From Saccharothrix saharensis (GTDB lineage Bacteria > Actinomycetota > Actinomycetes > Mycobacteriales > Pseudonocardiaceae), in the NCBI RefSeq assembly GCF_006716745.1, contig NZ_VFPP01000001.1, positions 868,001 to 932,000 on the forward strand: DNA of 64,000 nt, written 5' to 3'. The translations under genes were made by a program, and so were the position numbers. Below are positions 171-7,942 of the stretch, in pieces (position 1 is the first letter of the stretch; the number at the start of each line of letters is the position of its first letter). The notes under the pieces were generated by a model. It was not told the origin of the DNA. It did no database searches and saw only the letters and a program-made list of their open reading frames with translations.

Positions 171-962
171 GTGAGCGAAGAGCAGATCGGGTCGGTGCCG
201 CACGACGACCACCGGGCCGTGCCGCCGGACGAGCCGGCGCCGGCCCGGCAACGGCGGGCCGGGATCTCGTTGGTGGCCGTGTTCCTCGTCGGGCAGCTCA
301 CGATGCTGGTCGTGTCGGTGCTGGTGCTGCTGTCGTACGGCTCGGCGGAGACCGCGCTGCTGGAGGACGGCCGGCTGCTCGCGTTGCTGGTCGCGCCCAC
401 GTCGTTGGCCGCGGTGGTGGCGGCGATCGGGACCGGGCGGGTCGGCGCCGGGCCGAGGGCCGGCCGGGTGTGGCGGGAGCTGGCGGTCCGGTGGAACGTC
501 AAGGACATCGCCATCGGCTTGGCCCTGGGCGTGGGCGGGTTGGCGTTGACGCTGCCCGCGGCGGCGGTGTGGGCCGCGTGGGTGGGCGAGGACCAGGCCT
601 CCTCGGCGGTCGGTGACGCGTTCGCCGGGCGGGAGCTGACGCCCGTGGCGGCCGTGGTCGCGTTCCTCGCCGTGTGGCTCATCGCGCCGCTGGCCGAGGA
701 GGTGCTGTTCCGCGGCGTGCTGTGGCGCGCGTTCGAGCACCTGGGCTGGAACCGCTGGGTCGTGTTCGTGGCGACCAGCCTCGTGTTCTCGGTCGCGCAC
801 TTGGAACTGCTGCGCACACCGCTGCTGCTGGTGCTGTCGATCCCCATCGGCCTGGCCCGGTTGCTCACCGGCAACCTGCTCGCGAGCGTGGTCGCCCACC
901 AGGTGAACAACTTCCTCCCGGCCGTCGCGCTGTTCCTGGCCGCGACCGGCAACCTCCCTTGA
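171..962 (+). CDS. CPBP-family intramembrane metalloprotease
   Basis: A 263-residue polytopic membrane protein of the CPBP (CAAX protease and bacteriocin-processing / Abi) family. The three family motifs are visible in the C-terminal half: EEVLFRG (EExxxR) near residue 180, FSVAHLE (FxxxH) near 205 and HQVNNFL (HxxxN) near 243. These supply the metal-binding Glu and His residues inside the membrane. The first 35 residues are hydrophilic and Pro/Arg-rich, and the rest forms about seven or eight hydrophobic segments. Members act on membrane or prenylated substrates or give immunity to peptides; the substrate here is unknown. It points the same way as the next five genes, with an 89-bp gap to the following one. 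The GTG start is chosen because a promoter is placed for a leaderless message. Confidence 0.85.
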   Translation: MSEEQIGSVPHDDHRAVPPDEPAPARQRRAGISLVAVFLVGQLTMLVVSVLVLLSYGSAETALLEDGRLLALLVAPTSLAAVVAAIGTGRVGAGPRAGRVWRELAVRWNVKDIAIGLALGVGGLALTLPAAAVWAAWVGEDQASSAVGDAFAGRELTPVAAVVAFLAVWLIAPLAEEVLFRGVLWRAFEHLGWNRWVVFVATSLVFSVAHLELLRTPLLLVLSIPIGLARLLTGNLLASVVAHQVNNFLPAVALFLAATGNLP

Positions 963-1051
963 CCGTTCGCCCGTCCGGGGGACACACCGACACGGCCGCA
1001 TGATCCTTCGCGATACCCGGAGTACACGCCACACTCCGCACGGAGGTCGAG

Positions 1052-1486
1052 GTGCACACGTCGGGAGGCACCAGCGGAAACCGGGCCGCGTTGCCGGACG
1101 CCCTGCGCAGCCGGTGGCTGGCACCGGTCTACGCGCTGGTCGTCTCGTTCCTGGCCGTCCTGCTGCTCGGCGCGGTCGTGGGCGAACCCGCCGCGCCCAC
1201 CCGGTCGGTCGACATCCGGTTCGTGGCGCACGGTCAGGACCGGGCCTCGCTGGACAACGCCCGGGTCGAGGTGTTCGCCGGGACCGGATCGGCCCTCACG
1301 GTGAACGCCGAGGGCCGGATCGACGGCGTTCCGGCGGACGGGCCGCTCACGATCTGCGTGCGGCTGCCGCAGGGCTGGTCGGCGCCGGCACCGGCGCGCC
1401 GGCTCGGCGACCTCACGTGCTGGCCGGAGGTCGCCGCCGAGGGTCTGGTCGAGCTGCCCGTCACCCGGTCGGAGGCTCCCCGATGA
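1052..1486 (+). CDS. Single-pass membrane protein with a small extracytoplasmic domain
   Basis: A 144-residue protein with one hydrophobic segment at about residues 24-46 (start of it reads LAPVYALVVSFLAVLLLG). A soluble, beta-rich-looking domain of about 95 residues follows. Basic residues before the segment suggest the C-terminal domain is outside the cell. The two Cys in that domain (in TICVRLP and LTCWPEV) could form a disulfide. The GTG start is preceded by GGAGGTCGAG. Its stop overlaps the next start (ATGA), so the two are translationally coupled and probably work together. No known family is recognised. Its place in the vWA/PP2C/kinase operon suggests a sensor or anchor role, which is inference. 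Confidence 0.75.
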   Translation: MHTSGGTSGNRAALPDALRSRWLAPVYALVVSFLAVLLLGAVVGEPAAPTRSVDIRFVAHGQDRASLDNARVEVFAGTGSALTVNAEGRIDGVPADGPLTICVRLPQGWSAPAPARRLGDLTCWPEVAAEGLVELPVTRSEAPR

Positions 1487-2025
1487 CCACCGGGAACGCG
1501 GTGGTGACCGCGCTGACCGCACTGTGCGCGGCCCTGGGCGGGCTGGTCGGCCTCCACCTGCTCGACCTGGACTTCAAGCGCGCGGTGACCGTGGTGGTCG
1601 TCGGCGGGCTCTTCGGGGTCGTCGTCGCGCTCGGGCTGCTGACCGTCGACCGGCGTCCGACGCCGCACCGGGTGCCCGCCGCGCAACGGGAACCGGCGCC
1701 TGCCGCGCCGCGGGAACCGGTGCGCGCCCTGGCGGAACCGGAACCCGCTGCGGCGAACCGGACCTGGTGGTCCGAAACGCCCGCGCGCCCCGCGACCGCC
1801 CCGCCACCGGCCTCGGCCGAACCGCGGCCGTCGCGCGACGGCTACGACGTGGACAGCGCGGTGGTCGCGCAGTGCCCGCGCTGCGGCGACTTCCGCCTCG
1901 ACCTCGAGCAGGGCGCCGACACCTACGCGTTCCGCTGCCGAAACCCGAGGTGCGGGCACCGGTGGGAGTGGCGCGCGGGCGCACCGTGGCCGACGACGGT
2001 GGTCCGCCGCAACCTCACCGGATGA
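1483..2025 (+). CDS. Membrane-anchored zinc-ribbon protein with a WW linker motif
   Basis: A 180-residue protein. Residues about 5-27 and 34-56 form a two-helix membrane hairpin. A Pro/Ala/Glu-rich linker (about 60-125) carries TWWS at residues 94-97. The C-terminal 45 residues form a zinc ribbon, CPRCG followed by CRNPRCGHRW, with four metal-binding Cys. The start is the ATG in the ATGA overlap with the upstream gene. Zinc ribbons of this kind usually mediate protein or nucleic-acid contacts. The adjacent vWA gene starts 29 bp downstream behind a good ribosome site. The same Trp-Trp motif in a Pro-rich linker next to a membrane hairpin recurs in the kinase and the TIR protein of this island. 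No named family is recognised. Confidence 0.8.
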   Translation: MTTGNAVVTALTALCAALGGLVGLHLLDLDFKRAVTVVVVGGLFGVVVALGLLTVDRRPTPHRVPAAQREPAPAAPREPVRALAEPEPAAANRTWWSETPARPATAPPPASAEPRPSRDGYDVDSAVVAQCPRCGDFRLDLEQGADTYAFRCRNPRCGHRWEWRAGAPWPTTVVRRNLTG

Positions 2026-2054
2026 CGTGACGACCGACGACGAGGGGGTGTGAT

Positions 2055-2915
2055 GTGGAGAAGTACCGGCAGTCCGTGTCCCGGTCCGAGCCGGGGTGCG
2101 TGGTCATCCTGCTGGACCGCTCGGACTCGATGAAGCTCGCCTGGGGCCGCACCGGCGCGTCGCTCGCGGAGGGTGCGGCGCTGGCGGTGAACAACATCCT
2201 GCTGGACATGTGCATCAAGGCGACCACCGAGGTCAACGCCCCGGTGCGGCACTACTTCGACGTGGGCATCTTCAGCTACGGCGCACGCGTGACCGAACCT
2301 GGCGAGGGCGTGGAGTCGGCGTTCGGCGGCGCGCTGGCCGGTCGCGGTCTCGTGCCGCTGCCCGAGCTGGCCGAGCACCCCGTTGCGGTGCGGGAGGAGC
2401 CGTCCATCGACGTGATGCCGGTGAGCGCGCGCATGCCGGTCTGGGTGGACCCGGTGCACGGCTACCGCACGCCGATGTGCCAGGCCATCGCGGTCGCCGG
2501 CGCGCACGTGTTCGACTGGGCCGCCGCGCACCCGGACTCGTTCCCGCCCATCGTCGTCAACATCACCGACGGCATGGTGACCGACAGCCCGTACGACGGC
2601 GCGACCCTCCGGGACTGGGTGCGGCGGCTGACGTCGATCGAGACCGACGACGGCGCGACGTTGTTCTTCAACGTCTTCCTCTCGCCGTTCGAGGTCGACG
2701 AGATCGTGTTCCCGTCCGACCCGAACGGCCTGCCGTCCCCCGGCCCCGACCTGTTCGAGCTGAGCAGCCCGCTGCCGCCGCCTATGGTCGACAACGCCCG
2801 GGTCGACGGCTACGACGTCCGGCCCGGCGCGCGCGGCCTCGCGTTCAACGTCGGCCGCTCGACCCTGCTGCGGGTGCTGCAGATCGGCACCAGGGTCCCG
2901 GACCGCGCGAGGTAG
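2055..2915 (+). CDS. von Willebrand factor A (TerY-like) protein
   Basis: A 286-residue cytosolic protein made of one vWA domain. The MIDAS metal site is clear: DRSDSM with D21, S23 and S25 (DxSxS) after a hydrophobic strand, then a Thr in GYRTPMC and an Asp in ITDGMVTDS. It resembles the TerY-type vWA proteins that comparative genomics places with a PP2C phosphatase and a Ser/Thr kinase in stress-linked triads. Here the phosphatase starts 4 bp after its stop and the kinase follows. The role is probably a metal-dependent scaffold whose state is set by phosphorylation. The GTG start follows GAGGGGG. Confidence 0.85.
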   Translation: MEKYRQSVSRSEPGCVVILLDRSDSMKLAWGRTGASLAEGAALAVNNILLDMCIKATTEVNAPVRHYFDVGIFSYGARVTEPGEGVESAFGGALAGRGLVPLPELAEHPVAVREEPSIDVMPVSARMPVWVDPVHGYRTPMCQAIAVAGAHVFDWAAAHPDSFPPIVVNITDGMVTDSPYDGATLRDWVRRLTSIETDDGATLFFNVFLSPFEVDEIVFPSDPNGLPSPGPDLFELSSPLPPPMVDNARVDGYDVRPGARGLAFNVGRSTLLRVLQIGTRVPDRAR

Positions 2916-2919
2916 CGCC

Positions 2920-3717
2920 GTGAGCCACACCCGCCAGGTCGTCTTCTACGCGCCCAAGCACGGCAACGCCGAGGCCGAGTGGGAGGACGGCGCGGCGGCG
3001 GCCCCCGCCGACGGCGCCGGGCGCGGACCGCGGTTCGCCGTGGCCGACGGCGCCACGCAGGGCTTCGGCTCGGCCCGGTGGGCCCAGCAACTGGTCGCGG
3101 GCTTCGTCGGCGACCAGGGCGCGGCGCCGGACCTGACCGCGGCGGCGTTGCGCCGGTGGGCGTCGGACATGCAGGCGCGGTGGCACGACGACCCCCGGCT
3201 GGCCGGCGCGACCGACCTGCAACGGCTCAAGCAGGCCACGGTCGGTTCGTTCGCCACGTTCCTGGGCTGCGAGTTGCACGACCTGGCCGGACGGCGACCG
3301 CGCTGGACGGCCGTCGCGCTGGGTGACGCGGTGCTGTTCCACGTCCGCGGGCACCGGGTCGTGGCGCAGTTCCCACCCATCGCGCCGGATGGGTTCGGGT
3401 CCAACCCGGACGGTCTGCCGACCGGGTCCGCCGCGCTGGACGACATGGTCGACCGGGCGGTGTTCGCGAACGGCGACCTCGCCGACGGCGACCTGCTCTA
3501 CCTGGCCACGGACGCGTTCGCCCAGTGGGTCGCCGCGGCCGACCTGCGTGACGGGCCCGCGTTGTGGACGGCGTTGGCGCGCTTGGACCACCCCGAGGCG
3601 TTCCGGGAACTGGTCCGCGGTCGGCGGGCGGCGCGGGAGATGGTCAACGACGACGTCACCCTGGTGCGGGTGCGGTTCACCCGGGCTCCCGCGACGCACC
3701 TGGTGGTGTGCCTGTGA
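2920..3717 (+). CDS. PP2C-like Ser/Thr protein phosphatase
   Basis: A 265-residue PP2C-family protein. Metal-binding signatures are the Asp of FAVADGATQG (D43), the GDAVLFHV strand and the Asp in LATDAFAQW near residue 190. The chain is about the length of compact bacterial PP2C domains and has no membrane segment. It starts with GTG 4 bp after the vWA gene and overlaps the kinase gene by GTGA, so vWA, phosphatase and kinase are co-translated. It would remove phosphate from the vWA protein or other operon products placed there by the kinase. Partner identity is inferred from gene order. Confidence 0.85.
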   Translation: MSHTRQVVFYAPKHGNAEAEWEDGAAAAPADGAGRGPRFAVADGATQGFGSARWAQQLVAGFVGDQGAAPDLTAAALRRWASDMQARWHDDPRLAGATDLQRLKQATVGSFATFLGCELHDLAGRRPRWTAVALGDAVLFHVRGHRVVAQFPPIAPDGFGSNPDGLPTGSAALDDMVDRAVFANGDLADGDLLYLATDAFAQWVAAADLRDGPALWTALARLDHPEAFRELVRGRRAAREMVNDDVTLVRVRFTRAPATHLVVCL

Positions 3718-4928
3718 CCCGGTACCCGACGCCCGACGAGTACATGAAGGCCGTGCAGCGCCCGGACTGCTTCGTCGCCGACGAGCTGCGCGGGCTGGAG
3801 CTCGTCGCGCACCCGCTGTACGGGGTGCCGATGCCGGCGGCCGGCACGAGCGCCGTCGTGTTCAAGGCGGTCGCGGACGGCGAGCCGCAGGCGTTGCGGT
3901 TCTTCACCCGGGACGACGTGTCGAGCTCTGAGCGTTACGGCGCGTTGCACGAGCACTTCACGTCGCACGGCCTGGAAAACGTGGTCGCCCTGCCCCGGTG
4001 GGTGGACGGCGGTGTCCGCGTCAACGGGCGCTCGTGGCCGGTGGTGCGGATGCAGTGGGTGGAGGGGCACACGTTGAACCGGCACGTGGACGAGTTGGTG
4101 GAGCGCCGGGACACCGCGTCGTTGGCCGCGCTCGCGGTGACGTGGCGGGACCTGGTGGCACGGATCCAGCGGGCCGAGTTCGCGCACGGCGACCTCCAGC
4201 ACGGCAACGTCCTGGTGAGCCGGGACGGGGACCTGCGGCTGGTGGACTTCGACTGCTCGTGGATCGCCCGGCTCTCCGGCGCGCTCGCGCCCGGCGAGAC
4301 CGGGCACCGCAACTACCAACCGGAACAGCGGCCCTGGGGCCGGTGGATGGACACGTTCTCCGGGCTGGTCATCTACCTGTCCCTGCTGGCGCTGGCGAGG
4401 GATCCCACGGGGTGGCGCACCTGCTACACCGGCGAGAACCTGCTGTTGCGGCGGGAGGACTTCCGGCCACCGTTCGACACGCCCGCGTGGGCGCACCTGG
4501 CGGTGATCGGCGACCCGCACGTGACCGAGGTGGCCGGGCGGCTCAAGCAGTGCTGCACCCCGGGGTGGGTCGCGAGTTCGGGCCTGGACGACCTGCTCGC
4601 GCCCCGGTTCACGCCGTGGTGGGAGCGGACCCCCGTGGTGGTGGAGCCGGTGCCCGTTCCCGCGCCGCGGCCGCCGGTCGCCCGCCCGGTCGTGACGCGG
4701 GAAGGGAACTGGTGGGCCGCGGCTGAACCGTCCGCGCCGACCGCGCCCGTCGAGCAGCCTGCGCGCGAGCGGCCCGTGCCGGCGGGCGTGCTCGTGGTCG
4801 CGGCTTTCGTCGCGCTGCTGGTCTTCGGGCTCTTGGCGGACTCCGAGGCGGGCGCGGCGCTGGGCGTCGTGGTGGCGGCCCTGGTCGCGTCCACCGTCTG
4901 GTGGGTGCGGCGGCGCGGAGCGGGTTAG
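3714..4928 (+). CDS. Membrane-anchored protein-kinase-like protein (triad kinase)
   Basis: A 404-residue protein. Residues about 25-290 resemble a protein-kinase/APH fold. The catalytic loop HGDLQHGN (D160, N165) and the metal-binding DFD (D178) are intact. The usual beta-3 Lys is not obvious: the equivalent strand reads QALRFF, with Arg in its place, and no classic Gly-rich loop is seen. A Pro-rich linker with NWW at 332-334 follows, then two membrane helices (about 353-372 and 378-396) ending in RRR. The GTG start overlaps the phosphatase stop. Kinases of vWA/PP2C/kinase triads have this gene order. Activity is likely but not certain because of the N-lobe change. Its stop lies 1 bp from the end of the convergent TIR gene. 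Confidence 0.8.
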   Translation: MTRYPTPDEYMKAVQRPDCFVADELRGLELVAHPLYGVPMPAAGTSAVVFKAVADGEPQALRFFTRDDVSSSERYGALHEHFTSHGLENVVALPRWVDGGVRVNGRSWPVVRMQWVEGHTLNRHVDELVERRDTASLAALAVTWRDLVARIQRAEFAHGDLQHGNVLVSRDGDLRLVDFDCSWIARLSGALAPGETGHRNYQPEQRPWGRWMDTFSGLVIYLSLLALARDPTGWRTCYTGENLLLRREDFRPPFDTPAWAHLAVIGDPHVTEVAGRLKQCCTPGWVASSGLDDLLAPRFTPWWERTPVVVEPVPVPAPRPPVARPVVTREGNWWAAAEPSAPTAPVEQPARERPVPAGVLVVAAFVALLVFGLLADSEAGAALGVVVAALVASTVWWVRRRGAG

Positions 4929-4929
4929 G

Positions 4930-6111
4930 TCATCGCTCCTGCCGCCGTCGGGCCTGCACGGCGAACACCACTCCCGCGATCAGCATCGGCACGGCGACGA
5001 CGCCGATCGCGGGCACGTTCAGCGCGGCCACCAGGTACACGACCGCGAGCGCGAAGAACAGCACGCTCAGGCGGCCCAACCGGCGGGCGCTCCACTTCCG
5101 CGCGGGCGGTTCCGGCACGGCCTGTTCCTCCGGGACGGCGGCTTTCAGCCCTTCCGGTGGACGCGGTTCGGGCCGCGGCGCCGCCGGCCGTTCGGCTGAC
5201 GACCGCGTGGACGCCGAGTCGCCGCCCTGCCACCACTGCCTGCTCGGCGGCGGCGTGGCGGGCTTCGGTTGCGCGACGGTCGGTTGTCCCTCGGCCGCAA
5301 TCACGTCCCGCAGCCAGGTCGGTGTCGTCCCGGGACCTCCGCTCGGCGGCTGGACCGGTTCCTCCTCCGGCGGGGGCGGCGGACCGATCACCACCGGGTT
5401 CTTCTCCCAGTCGTCGGCCGCCGACAGCCAGGTGGCGCCCTCGGGCAGGTCTTCGCCCGCGCCCGGCCCGACGTTGGCCAGGATCTCGTCGATCTCCCGC
5501 GAGTTGAGGTTGGTGATCTCGCCGCGCTCGCGGAACTCGCGCAGCAGCTTGACGATGTCGGCGCGGGCGACCTCGTCGCGCTCGGTGCGCAGGTGCCGGC
5601 GCAACTGGCCGATGATGGTCTCCTGCCGTTCCGGCGGGATCGGCGCGGGGCCGAGGAGCTCGGCGATCCGGTACAGGTACTCGAACGGCACCTTCGGCGG
5701 GGGTGGCAGGGGGTTCGGCAGCACGCGCGGCCGGGCGGTCAGCTCCGTGAGCGCGCCCGCCAGCGCCACGACCGCGTCGGCGCTGCGCTCCCGGTAGTCG
5801 ACCAGCTGGCGTTCCATGATCGGGATGCGGAGGTGGTCCAGCGGCCCGACCTGCACCGGGAGCACGGGCACGCCGAGCTGCTGCGCGTACTCGAACTCCG
5901 TGTGGCAGGGCACCGACTTCCAGGACGCCTCGGACAGCGCGAACACGAACACCCGCGCCGCCTGGATCGTGCGGATGATCTCGCGCCACCACAGCTCACC
6001 GCCGTGGATCTCGTGGTCGAGCCAGACCTGGTGCCCCATCCGGTCGAGGTCCTGTCGGAGGGCGCGCACCAGGCTCTCGTCGGCACGGGTGTAGCTGACG
6101 AAGACGGTCAT
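4930..6111 (-). CDS. TIR-domain protein with C-terminal membrane hairpin
   Basis: A 393-residue protein. Residues 1-130 are a TIR domain: it opens with TVFVSYTRADE, and CHTEFE places the likely catalytic Glu at residue 72, as in NAD-cleaving bacterial TIRs. A helical middle section (about 145-225) follows, then a long Pro-rich linker with QWWQ (W293, W294). Two membrane helices near the C terminus end in ARRRQER. TIR domains either hydrolyse or cyclise NAD+ or act as adaptors. The ATG at 6111 is chosen because TIR homology begins there and GGAGGG lies 9 nt upstream; a GTG 27 nt upstream is possible. It is convergent with the kinase gene (1-bp gap), not in its operon, yet shares that protein's linker motif and membrane hairpin. 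Confidence 0.85.
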   Translation of the reverse strand: MTVFVSYTRADESLVRALRQDLDRMGHQVWLDHEIHGGELWWREIIRTIQAARVFVFALSEASWKSVPCHTEFEYAQQLGVPVLPVQVGPLDHLRIPIMERQLVDYRERSADAVVALAGALTELTARPRVLPNPLPPPPKVPFEYLYRIAELLGPAPIPPERQETIIGQLRRHLRTERDEVARADIVKLLREFRERGEITNLNSREIDEILANVGPGAGEDLPEGATWLSAADDWEKNPVVIGPPPPPEEEPVQPPSGGPGTTPTWLRDVIAAEGQPTVAQPKPATPPPSRQWWQGGDSASTRSSAERPAAPRPEPRPPEGLKAAVPEEQAVPEPPARKWSARRLGRLSVLFFALAVVYLVAALNVPAIGVVAVPMLIAGVVFAVQARRRQER

Positions 6112-6200: not shown

Positions 6201-7049
6201 CTACCGGACCCGTTGGAGTGACTTCTCCCGGCGCTCGGCCACGCTCGACCCGGACTCCCGCCGCGCCATCCGCCGCAGCACGACCGGCGCCAGGACCAGG
6301 CCGAGGACCGCCCACGCGGTGAGCACGCCGACGGTCTCCAGGTGCCGCCAGGACTCCCCGATCTCCACGGTGACGGCGGCGTCGGGCAGCAGCGCCGAGC
6401 GCATGCCCAGGCCGAGCCAGTAGACCGGGAAGACCTGGGCGACCCACTGCACCCAGCCCGGCAGGGCCGTGACCGGGTAGAAGATGCCCGAGACAGCGAT
6501 CATGCCGAGGATCGGGAGCATCAGCAGGCCCTGCCCGCGGGCGCCGGCGAACACCGAACCCAGCACCGCGCCGATCGGCAGGGCCGCGAGCATGCCCAGC
6601 GCCAGCACCCACGCCAGCGTCAGCCACGCGTCCACGCTGCCGGTGACCAGGCCGGAGACCAGGAACACCCCCGGCACCAGGAAGATCGCCAGGTCCACGA
6701 GCAGGCCACCGGCCACGAAGACGATCTTGCCGACCAGGTAGCCCAGCATCCCGTTGGGCGTGGCCTTGGCGCGCAGGAGCGTGCCGTCCTCGCGTTCGGC
6801 GGCGAGCAGTTGGCTCATGGTGACCATGGCCATCGCGGCGTTCATGCCCAGGATGCTCGGCAGCGCGAGCGCGCCGACCGAGAAGCCGGTCCCGCCGAAC
6901 GACACGTCACGCAGGAAGTACGTGACGACCAGCATCAGCACGGGCCAGAACGCGTGGTTCCACAGGTCCGCGCCGTTGGTCAGCGACTGCCGGAGCTCGA
7001 TCAGGCCCCTCCGCCAACCGGCACGCGATGCCGTCGTGGTGGGGTTCAC
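6201..7049 (-). CDS. ABC-2 type transporter permease
   Basis: A 282-residue inner-membrane permease with about six hydrophobic segments and the ABC-2 layout seen in DrrB-type drug exporters, including a long first cytoplasmic segment and an EREDGTLLRAKATP loop between helices 2 and 3. The GTG start overlaps the stop of the ATPase gene (GTGA), so the two form one transporter. The substrate is unknown; DrrAB-type pairs export hydrophobic drugs or lipids. The divergent regulator at 8156 is the likely controller. Confidence 0.88.
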   Translation of the reverse strand: MNPTTTASRAGWRRGLIELRQSLTNGADLWNHAFWPVLMLVVTYFLRDVSFGGTGFSVGALALPSILGMNAAMAMVTMSQLLAAEREDGTLLRAKATPNGMLGYLVGKIVFVAGGLLVDLAIFLVPGVFLVSGLVTGSVDAWLTLAWVLALGMLAALPIGAVLGSVFAGARGQGLLMLPILGMIAVSGIFYPVTALPGWVQWVAQVFPVYWLGLGMRSALLPDAAVTVEIGESWRHLETVGVLTAWAVLGLVLAPVVLRRMARRESGSSVAERREKSLQRVR

Positions 7050-7942
7050 CCGGCCACCCCTCCCGCCTCGACCCGGCGCACCAGCGACAGGTAGGTGTCC
7101 TCCAGGGAGGCCCGGCGGACCTCCAGGTCGGTGATGCCGTCACCGTGGCGGCGGAACAGGTCGTGCACGAACTTCGTGGACTCCCGCACGTGCCGCACGT
7201 GCGACCGTCCGGCGTGGGTCCAGCGGACCTCGTCCTCGCCCGCGATCCGCTGGGCCAGCTCCTCGGCCGTGCCGTCGGCGACGATCCGGCCGCCGTCGAG
7301 CACCACGATCCGGTCGGCGAGCTTCTCGGCTTCGTCCAGGTCGTGGGTGGTGAGCAGGATCGTGGTGGCGTCCTGCGCGGCGAGCCGGCGCACCAGCTCG
7401 TGGAACTCGCGCCGGGCCACCGGGTCGAAGCCGGTGGTCGGCTCGTCCAGGAACAGCAGTTCCGGGCGGCCGACGATGCCCACCGCGACGTCCAGCCTGC
7501 GCCGCTGACCGCCGGACAGCGTCCTGACCTTCCGGTCGGCTTGCGCGGCCAGGCCGACGGCCGCGACCAGCTCGTCCGGGTCCCACGGTCGCGCGATCCG
7601 GTCGGTGGCGTAGCAGGCGTAGTAGGTGCCCAGGTGGTGCAGCAGCTCGCGGACGCGCCACTTGCCGTGGTCGCGCCACGACTGCAGGACGACGCCGACG
7701 CGGGCGCGCCACCCCTCGTCGGCGTGGGCCGGGTCCGCGCCGAGCACCGACACGCGGCCCGCCGACCGCATCCGGAAGCCCTCCAGGATCTCGATGGTGG
7801 TCGTCTTGCCCGCACCGTTCGGGCCGAGCAGGGCGAGCACCTCGCCGTGGCGGGCGTGGAACGTGACGTCGTGCAGGACGTCGGTCGTGCCGTAGCGCAT
7901 GCGCAGGCCTTCGACGTCGAGCACGACTTGCTCGCTCGTCAT
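7046..7942 (-). CDS. ABC transporter ATP-binding protein (DrrA-like)
   Basis: A 298-residue ATPase with Walker A LLGPNGAGKTTT, signature LSGGQRRRLDVA, Walker B LLFLDEPTTGFD and H-loop LTTHDLDEAEKLADRI. The C-terminal extension is typical of ABC-2 exporter ATPases. The ATG at 7942 sits just after a GGGGGAGG run. A start 21 nt upstream would encode that purine run and has no ribosome site of its own, so the shorter form is preferred. It is coupled to the permease gene and faces away from the regulator at 8156. Confidence 0.9.
   Translation of the reverse strand: MTSEQVVLDVEGLRMRYGTTDVLHDVTFHARHGEVLALLGPNGAGKTTTIEILEGFRMRSAGRVSVLGADPAHADEGWRARVGVVLQSWRDHGKWRVRELLHHLGTYYACYATDRIARPWDPDELVAAVGLAAQADRKVRTLSGGQRRRLDVAVGIVGRPELLFLDEPTTGFDPVARREFHELVRRLAAQDATTILLTTHDLDEAEKLADRIVVLDGGRIVADGTAEELAQRIAGEDEVRWTHAGRSHVRHVRESTKFVHDLFRRHGDGITDLEVRRASLEDTYLSLVRRVEAGGVAG

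What the first reader, a model, noticed from the sequence alone, without database searches (positions are those of the whole stretch)
171..6111. Membrane-linked TIR / vWA / PP2C / kinase / zinc-ribbon island
Seen: CPBP protease, one-TM protein, two-TM zinc-ribbon protein, vWA protein, PP2C-like phosphatase and two-TM kinase, in order and mostly overlapping, with a two-TM TIR protein convergent at a 1-bp gap. Known: vWA/PP2C/kinase triads are described around TerY-type systems, TIR domains are NAD-consuming immune effectors, and CPBP proteins include Abi factors. Inference: a phosphorylation-gated, membrane-based stress or antiphage system whose effector is the TIR protein. I know of no description of this exact set.
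Basis: partly seen in the sequence, partly recalled or inferred. Interest (0 to 1): 0.8.

Follow-up and report, generated by a model that had tools for sequence, protein, structure and literature searches.

The report
Membrane kinase switch with swappable effectors
A soil bacterium and its relatives carry a conserved membrane-bound protein switch (kinase, phosphatase, vWA protein) wired to exchangeable effector proteins, here a TIR protein that probably destroys NAD, and three of its six proteins share a short double-tryptophan motif that may plug the effector in.

Summary
1TM (B), zinc-ribbon (C), vWA (D), PP2C (E), kinase (F) and convergent TIR (G) stay together in 10 loci of four genera; the CPBP gene is only a neighbour in some Saccharothrix. 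D/E/F match the TerY-P triad of PADLOC, but the kinase ends in a linker and two TM helices instead of an OB fold. In one family 17 of 390 genomes have this vWA subfamily: 11 of 17 loci have such a TIR gene beside the triad, one has another TIR, five have other slot proteins (kinase-FHA-ABC, dynamin-like, GAP1-like, a 254-aa protein). Unexpectedly, a WW motif recurs in C (24 of 29 loci), F (28 of 30) and slot proteins (21 of 25 chosen by position); 16 of these 25 have it in Pro-rich sequence, against 2 of 167 neighbour proteins with such sequence. I read it as a docking tag linking interchangeable effectors to a membrane-bound TerY-P switch. It is solid for the TIR and kinase-FHA-ABC types, weak for the others. 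Anti-phage role, phospho-gating and NADase activity are inferred; the kinase's beta-3 Lys is Arg throughout. New variant of a known kind.

The parts
1052..1486 (+). B: one-TM protein with a probably extracytoplasmic beta domain holding two conserved Cys; possible sensor
   Evidence: alignment A5 of 10; AlphaFold pLDDT 78, helix 17-42 then beta strands; weak CnaB/Ig-like matches only, best E 2.8e-3
1483..2025 (+). C: two-TM protein, Pro-rich linker with WW, C-terminal zinc ribbon
   Evidence: alignment A3 of 10
1765..1770 (+). WW motif in C (NRTWWSET)
   Evidence: WW in C in 24 of 29 loci
2055..2915 (+). D: TerY-like vWA protein
   Evidence: PADLOC TerY 1.9e-44; most conserved part of the triad; DxSxS...T...D metal site read by eye
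2920..3717 (+). E: PP2C-like phosphatase
   Evidence: PADLOC PP2C 4.9e-27
3714..4928 (+). F: kinase-like domain, linker with two WW motifs, two C-terminal TM helices; HGDLQHGN and VDFD kept, beta-3 Lys replaced by Arg
   Evidence: PADLOC STK_OB over residues 3-298 only; alignment A4 of 13
4617..4622 (+). WW motif 1 of F (PWWERT), right after the kinase domain
   Evidence: invariant in 13 of 13 rows of A4; F carries WW after the kinase domain in 28 of 30 loci
4710..4715 (+). WW motif 2 of F (GNWWAAA)
4930..6111 (-). G: TIR effector: TIR domain, helical domain, long linker, two TM helices
   Evidence: TIR_2 1.4e-19; fold match to SPARTA and SARM1 TIR, Z 15.8 and 14.6
5785..6105 (-). TIR domain of G (residues 3-109)
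5896..5898 (-). Glu72 of G, predicted NADase glutamate
   Evidence: invariant in 8 of 8 and in the six correctly read rows; its role is recalled from SARM1
5230..5235 (-). WW motif in the linker of G (RQWWQGG)
171..962 (+). A: CPBP intramembrane protease, neighbour and not a conserved component
   Evidence: beside the set in the window and L043-L046; absent in L047-L049, L116 and L117

Best explanation
B-C-D-E-F is a membrane-anchored variant of the TerY-P (vWA/PP2C/kinase) signalling switch with an interchangeable effector; in this genome the effector is G, a membrane-anchored TIR enzyme. Shown: the set is a conserved unit, the effector place is taken by unrelated proteins in different lineages, and the TIR and kinase-FHA-ABC effectors share a WW linker motif with F and C. 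Inferred: B senses something at the cell surface; kinase F and phosphatase E set the state of the complex around vWA protein D and zinc-ribbon protein C; the WW motifs are docking sites (some perhaps phospho-sites, as Thr often follows three residues on) for D or another shared partner that holds the effector at the membrane; on activation the TIR domains assemble and cleave NAD, stopping growth, most likely as protection against phage.
For: Conserved set: B-C-D-E-F with convergent G in 10 loci (window and L043-L049; L116, L117), four genera. TIR linkage under rearrangement: L084, L085, L119. Specificity: among 120 family genomes G's homologues at 60% identity or more occur only in G000, G007 and G089, each time beside the triad. 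Other slot proteins: kinase-FHA-ABC, dynamin-like, short TIR, GAP1-like with GTPase (weak matches), and a 254-aa protein ending TPWWERT. WW motif: C 24 of 29, F 28 of 30 loci, slot protein outside the TIR domain 21 of 25 chosen by position. Like for like, system proteins with at least 20 Pro-rich residues have WW there in 36 of 49, other proteins of the same regions in 1 of 58, and in 2 of 167 with any such stretch. WW in C and in the slot protein go together (21 both, 3 neither, 1 mixed; Fisher 0.0017, relatedness not corrected). TIR fold. TerY-P as an anti-phage system: passages of PMC7699616 and PMC11090510, both reporting Gao et al. 2020.
Against: In the 13 aligned kinases of this clade Arg stands in place of the beta-3 Lys, so F may be a pseudokinase; 3 of 13 other TerY-P kinases have Arg too. 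The three upstream-TIR loci (L084, L085, L119) lack WW in C and TIR; the GAP1-like protein of L030 has a WW only in a part that looks folded. WW anywhere is not rare: 72 of 631 neighbour proteins, 30 of 166 of at least 390 aa, so single WWs in the dynamin-like proteins and the short TIR, outside Pro-rich sequence, could be chance. Under the strict Pro-rich rule only 16 of 25 slot proteins count, and the window's own TIR falls just short. L050's 254-aa protein was chosen by its WW; the 97-aa protein in G's place there has none. No defence-island signal. No close homologue on plasmids (best 33.5%), and none of the TIR part in phage records. D is the most conserved part in standard triads as well.
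Confidence: 0.55

Rival explanations
1. A TerY-P-like stress or envelope signalling switch without an anti-phage role; the TIR is a non-enzymatic adaptor or a developmental killer.
For: The probable extracytoplasmic domain of B and the other membrane parts point at the envelope. Slot proteins include a kinase-FHA-ABC transporter. Flanks show no clear defence island. One passage links TerY-P to tellurite resistance.
Against: Patchy distribution (17 of 390 family genomes). NADase-type TIR fold with invariant E72. The exchange of effectors resembles conflict systems.
Confidence: 0.3
2. The genes are accidental neighbours.
For: The CPBP and ABC genes next to the set are indeed accidental.
Against: B-G kept in 10 of 10 close loci with different flanks; TIR linkage kept in rearranged loci.
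Confidence: 0.03
3. The WW motif is a membrane-interface or linker-composition feature, or partly chance, and not a shared docking site.
For: C, F, the window's TIR and the kinase-FHA-ABC proteins are membrane proteins; WW anywhere occurs in 72 of 631 neighbour proteins; three TIR loci do without it.
Against: WW lies at variable and often large distance from the TM helices and is kept while the linkers change; neighbour proteins with at least 20 Pro-rich residues have it there in 1 of 58.
Confidence: 0.25
4. It is an ordinary GAP1-N2 GTPase-centred system.
For: Kaur et al. 2020 describe actinobacterial GAP1-N2 neighbourhoods with TM-linked kinase, PP2C and vWA genes, and L030 looks like one (weak GAP1-M and DO-GTPase2 matches below cut-off).
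Against: No GAP1-M match in the whole genome of the window. Other loci were not scanned for it systematically.
Confidence: 0.03

Closest known systems
TerY-P triad (PADLOC TerY, PP2C, STK_OB; Gao et al. 2020 as reported in PMC7699616 and PMC11090510, passages seen)
   Same: vWA, PP2C and kinase; profile matches for all three
   Different: Kinase lacks the OB fold (or fused zinc ribbon) and ends in two TM helices; zinc ribbon is on a separate two-TM protein; extra 1TM protein; adjacent effector gene; WW motifs
GAP1-N2 systems, third theme (Kaur et al. 2020, PMC7159879, section 29 read)
   Same: Actinobacterial kinase fused to TM helices next to PP2C and stand-alone vWA genes
   Different: No GAP1-M match in this genome; TIR effector; that section mentions neither a WW motif nor a TIR partner for this theme
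TIR NADase effectors (SPARTA TIR-APAZ, SARM1, Cat1)
   Same: TIR fold (SPARTA Z 15.8, SARM1 Z 14.6; Cat1 by sequence, E 0.0025), conserved Glu72
   Different: No Argonaute or CRISPR part in the set; C-terminal TM helices and company of a kinase/phosphatase switch

Membership tests
TerY-P triad | TerY-like vWA protein with metal site | tested here: met
   PADLOC TerY 1.9e-44 over 4-281; DRSDS, T and D present (motif meaning recalled)
TerY-P triad | PP2C-like phosphatase | tested here: met
   PADLOC PP2C 4.9e-27
TerY-P triad | Kinase fused at the C-terminus to an OB fold or zinc ribbon | tested here: not met
   STK_OB match ends at residue 298 of 404 and profile position 297 of 562; the rest is linker and two TM helices; zinc ribbon lies in gene C
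TerY-P triad | Anti-phage activity | not testable with these tools
   none for this variant
TerY-P triad | Active kinase | tested here: inconclusive
   HGDLQHGN and VDFD kept, beta-3 Lys is Arg in 13 of 13
GAP1-N2 system | GAP1 protein | tested here: not met
   0 matches of PF20014 in the window's genome; the same search rang in 1 of 14 control genomes
TIR NADase | TIR fold | tested here: met
TIR NADase | Catalytic glutamate | tested here: met
   E72 invariant in 8 of 8; its equivalence to SARM1's catalytic Glu is recalled
TIR NADase | NAD cleavage | not testable with these tools
   assay needed
Thoeris | ThsB-type TIR with ThsA partner | tested here: inconclusive
   best ThsB model only 0.008 for G; ThsA was not searched

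The most novel reading that the evidence does not exclude
The xWWxxT/A motif is a portable address tag: a protein that carries it in a flexible linker becomes the effector of the membrane vWA/PP2C/kinase switch, so that lineages exchange TIR NADases, kinase-FHA-ABC transporters and perhaps dynamin-like GTPases under one controller, and the tag can be used to find unknown effectors (it pointed to the 254-aa protein of L050).
Probability: 0.4. Interest if true: 0.78.

Novelty: new variant of a known kind. Interest (0 to 1): 0.6.

Why it matters
TerY-P triads are described as stand-alone defence modules and as add-ons of larger systems, but the passages seen here do not say how they reach an effector. 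A variant in which the effector is exchanged while a short motif shared by kinase, zinc-ribbon protein and effector stays would make this directly testable, and would connect phosphorylation-type signalling to TIR-mediated NAD depletion in bacteria.

Tried and rejected
CPBP and ABC genes as components: rejected. GAP1-N2 membership: rejected. Zinc ribbon of C as a piece split from the kinase: six standard triad kinases of the family show no obvious zinc ribbon at their ends (by eye), and the C and F profiles share only a TM stretch; undecided. D as the WW reader because it is so conserved: undecided, the same rank order holds in standard triads. Defence company: the 109 flanking proteins come from 12 loci and the upstream piece L009; 43 PADLOC families matched at 1e-10, of which the tool showed 25 (mad3 in 4 proteins, mad8, C3a156 and AriA in 2, the others shown in 1, among them kinase models, MzaA and a phospholipase effector). 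I judged these generic, without a control set. Other WW-tagged genes in the own genome: one codon-limited pattern gave four sites, as did its backward control; only F's lay in a linker. No structural match is claimed for B (best E 2.8e-3). The helical domain of G was not searched alone. Literature: searches listed no paper that I recognised as describing this set or the WW motif; only three papers were opened.

Mistakes and dropped rows: the background wrongly held three system proteins (two re-read from L009, and L056's kinase); searches are the corrected counts. In one search the L116 row was read on the wrong strand and is ignored. In one search the second WW listed for L116 is the one inside its TIR domain (the gene call is truncated at the start) and is not counted. 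L034 gave no called vWA gene and was not pursued. L083 has no slot protein assigned (its contig ends upstream); L056, L058 and L059 are cut by contig ends, so their slot proteins are not counted. L060 and L120 slot proteins, F of L056 and L060, several C genes and B of L049 were read as stop-to-stop ORFs, because the gene caller missed or misplaced them.

Full report
What is there. The window lies in a genome of 8.9 Mb whose nearest named relatives here are Saccharothrix species. Genes B to G lie at 1052-6111 and code for a one-TM protein, a two-TM zinc-ribbon protein, a vWA protein, a PP2C-like phosphatase, a kinase-like protein with two C-terminal TM helices and, convergent at a 1-bp gap, a TIR protein with two C-terminal TM helices. 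PADLOC names D, E and F TerY, PP2C and STK_OB; the kinase match stops before the second half of that profile.

Is it a unit? The vWA subfamily is rare. All tallies include the own genome. At E 1e-5, 14 of 120 family genomes hold any TerY-like vWA. At 1e-60 with a Frankia-type query, 17 of 390 family genomes and 11 of 394 class genomes match. At 1e-52 with the window's own protein, 6 of 397 order genomes match and 3 of 396 phylum genomes, the two besides the own one only 40-42% identical. The neighbourhoods of all 17 family loci were read, some through named copies matched by coordinates. Ten have B-C-D-E-F with the convergent TIR gene (window, L043-L049, L116, L117; four genera). One (L119) has a related TIR gene upstream in the same direction, as have L084 and L085 from other families of the order. 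One (L057) has a different, short TIR gene. The other five are kinase-FHA-ABC (L051, and L058 cut by the contig end), dynamin-like GTPase (L118), GAP1-like plus GTPase (L030, weak matches) and the 254-aa protein (L050). So 12 of 17 loci have a TIR gene beside the triad, 11 of them of this kind. Conversely, among 120 family genomes the TIR-plus-helical protein at 60% identity or more occurs in three genomes, each time beside the triad; weaker homologues (31-37%) form tandem TIR pairs in four genomes of one genus, and one 34% match lies elsewhere in G007 (L073-L076 read, no triad in those stretches).

Which genes are not part. The CPBP gene is beside the set in the window and L043-L046 but not in L116, L117 or L047-L049. 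The ABC transporter pair at 6201-7942 is present in L044-L046 but not in L043 or the other genera.

The WW motif. Reading the linkers showed a tandem tryptophan in C, F and G, kept while the linkers change strongly in length and letters. It recurs in slot proteins: three to five copies in each kinase-FHA-ABC protein read in full (L051-L055, L060, L120, L121), two in the 254-aa protein of L050, whose last residues (TPWWERT) equal the motif that follows F's kinase domain, and one each in the dynamin-like proteins of L086 and L118 (aligned with each other, in a variable stretch) and at the N-terminus of the short TIR of L057. Over 30 distinct loci: C has WW in 24 of 29 read, F in 28 of 30, and the slot protein, outside the TIR domain, in 21 of 25 chosen by position and read in full; L050 is left out of the last count because its protein was picked by the motif. 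Missing: C of L050, L083, L084, L085, L119; F of L083 and L119; slot proteins of L084, L085, L119, and of L030, whose only WW lies in a part that looks folded. With the rule that the WW must lie in Pro-rich sequence (31-residue window, at least 20% Pro), 16 of 25 slot proteins remain: 8 of 10 convergent TIRs (the window's own and L046 fall just short) and 8 of 8 kinase-FHA-ABC proteins.

Controls. Of 631 other proteins of the same regions, 58 have at least 20 Pro-rich residues and one of these has WW there; 167 have any such residue and two have WW there. The matching figure for 55 system proteins is 36 of 49. WW anywhere occurs in 72 of the 631, and in 30 of 166 with at least 390 residues, so the single WWs of the dynamin-like proteins and the short TIR are weak evidence. 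Of 13 standard TerY-P kinases none has WW in a Pro-rich linker; one has it near its end. WW in C and in the slot protein go together (21 both, 3 neither, 1 mixed; Fisher 0.0017 without L050; 0.006 with it; relatedness not corrected). A forward test was written down before loci L116-L122 were opened: L122 proved a copy of L055; in the six distinct ones C, F and slot protein all had WW in five and none had it in L119; the slot protein of L118 has it outside Pro-rich sequence, so strictly it misses the prediction, and most of these loci are close to ones already seen, so the test is mild. Among 78 motif copies (after dropping a few in TM or folded parts and one at a protein end) the third residue after WW is T in 31 and A in 13.

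Parts. G: AlphaFold mean pLDDT 65.5 overall; over the TIR domain the ten-residue means run from 58 to 93, most above 80. TIR folds of SPARTA (Z 15.8, rmsd 2.4, 128 residues) and SARM1 (Z 14.6) are nearest; by sequence the only PDB match at 0.01 is Cat1, a CRISPR-associated TIR protein (E 0.0025). E72 is invariant. L084's TIR protein ends in a CD225 domain (E 3e-15; below the cut-off in L085 and L119). F keeps HGDLQHGN and VDFD but has Arg for the beta-3 Lys in 13 of 13 aligned; Lys stands there in 10 of 13 standard kinases. B varies most (21-34% outside the Saccharothrix loci), as a surface sensor might.

How it most likely works. See Best explanation. Shown: conserved unit, interchangeable slot protein, shared motif in the two main types, TIR fold. 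Inferred: docking by WW, gating by kinase and phosphatase, NAD loss, anti-phage use.

Against the known. TerY-P-like triads with a kinase-OB fusion are reported as stand-alone anti-phage systems, and with a kinase-zinc-ribbon fusion as companions of CoCoNuT systems (passages). Kaur et al. 2020 describe actinobacterial GAP1-N2 neighbourhoods with a kinase fused to TM helices beside PP2C and vWA genes (section read); so the membrane-type triad itself is known, in one context. The searches gave no paper that I recognised as describing the TIR-linked set, the exchange of slot proteins or the WW motif; Anantharaman et al. 2012 and Gao et al. 2020 were not read. Hence: new variant of a known kind.

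Noticed in passing
G000 (own genome), 22 places: The genome has 22 TIR_2 matches at E 0.001 or better, 21 of them over the family cut-off.
   Followed up: no
L031 (G000:C1:8884001-8904000): A second, standard TerY-P triad in the same genome, with a 714-aa kinase, no WW and no TIR among the neighbours listed.
   Followed up: partly
L073, L074, L075, L076: Tandem pairs of TIR proteins in another genus of the family, near a DnaJ-like gene (by eye), with no triad in the stretches read.
   Followed up: partly
L084:12035-13369: A TIR protein ending in a CD225 (interferon-induced transmembrane protein) domain, E 3e-15.
   Followed up: partly
L051:13131-16514, L053:13091-16498, L121:13113-16547: Ser/Thr kinase-FHA-ABC ATPase-membrane fusion proteins (domains scanned in L053 only) of about 1100-1300 aa with several WW motifs, directly after the triad kinase.
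   Followed up: partly
L057:8216-8809, L083:11721-12365, L118:14570-15121: A shared membrane-protein family of 183-214 aa without a Pfam match (scanned in L057) near three module loci.
   Followed up: no
L083:4590-6272, L085:15808-16401: Two loci share a neighbour with a GHMVDxPDR motif, seen by eye.
   Followed up: no
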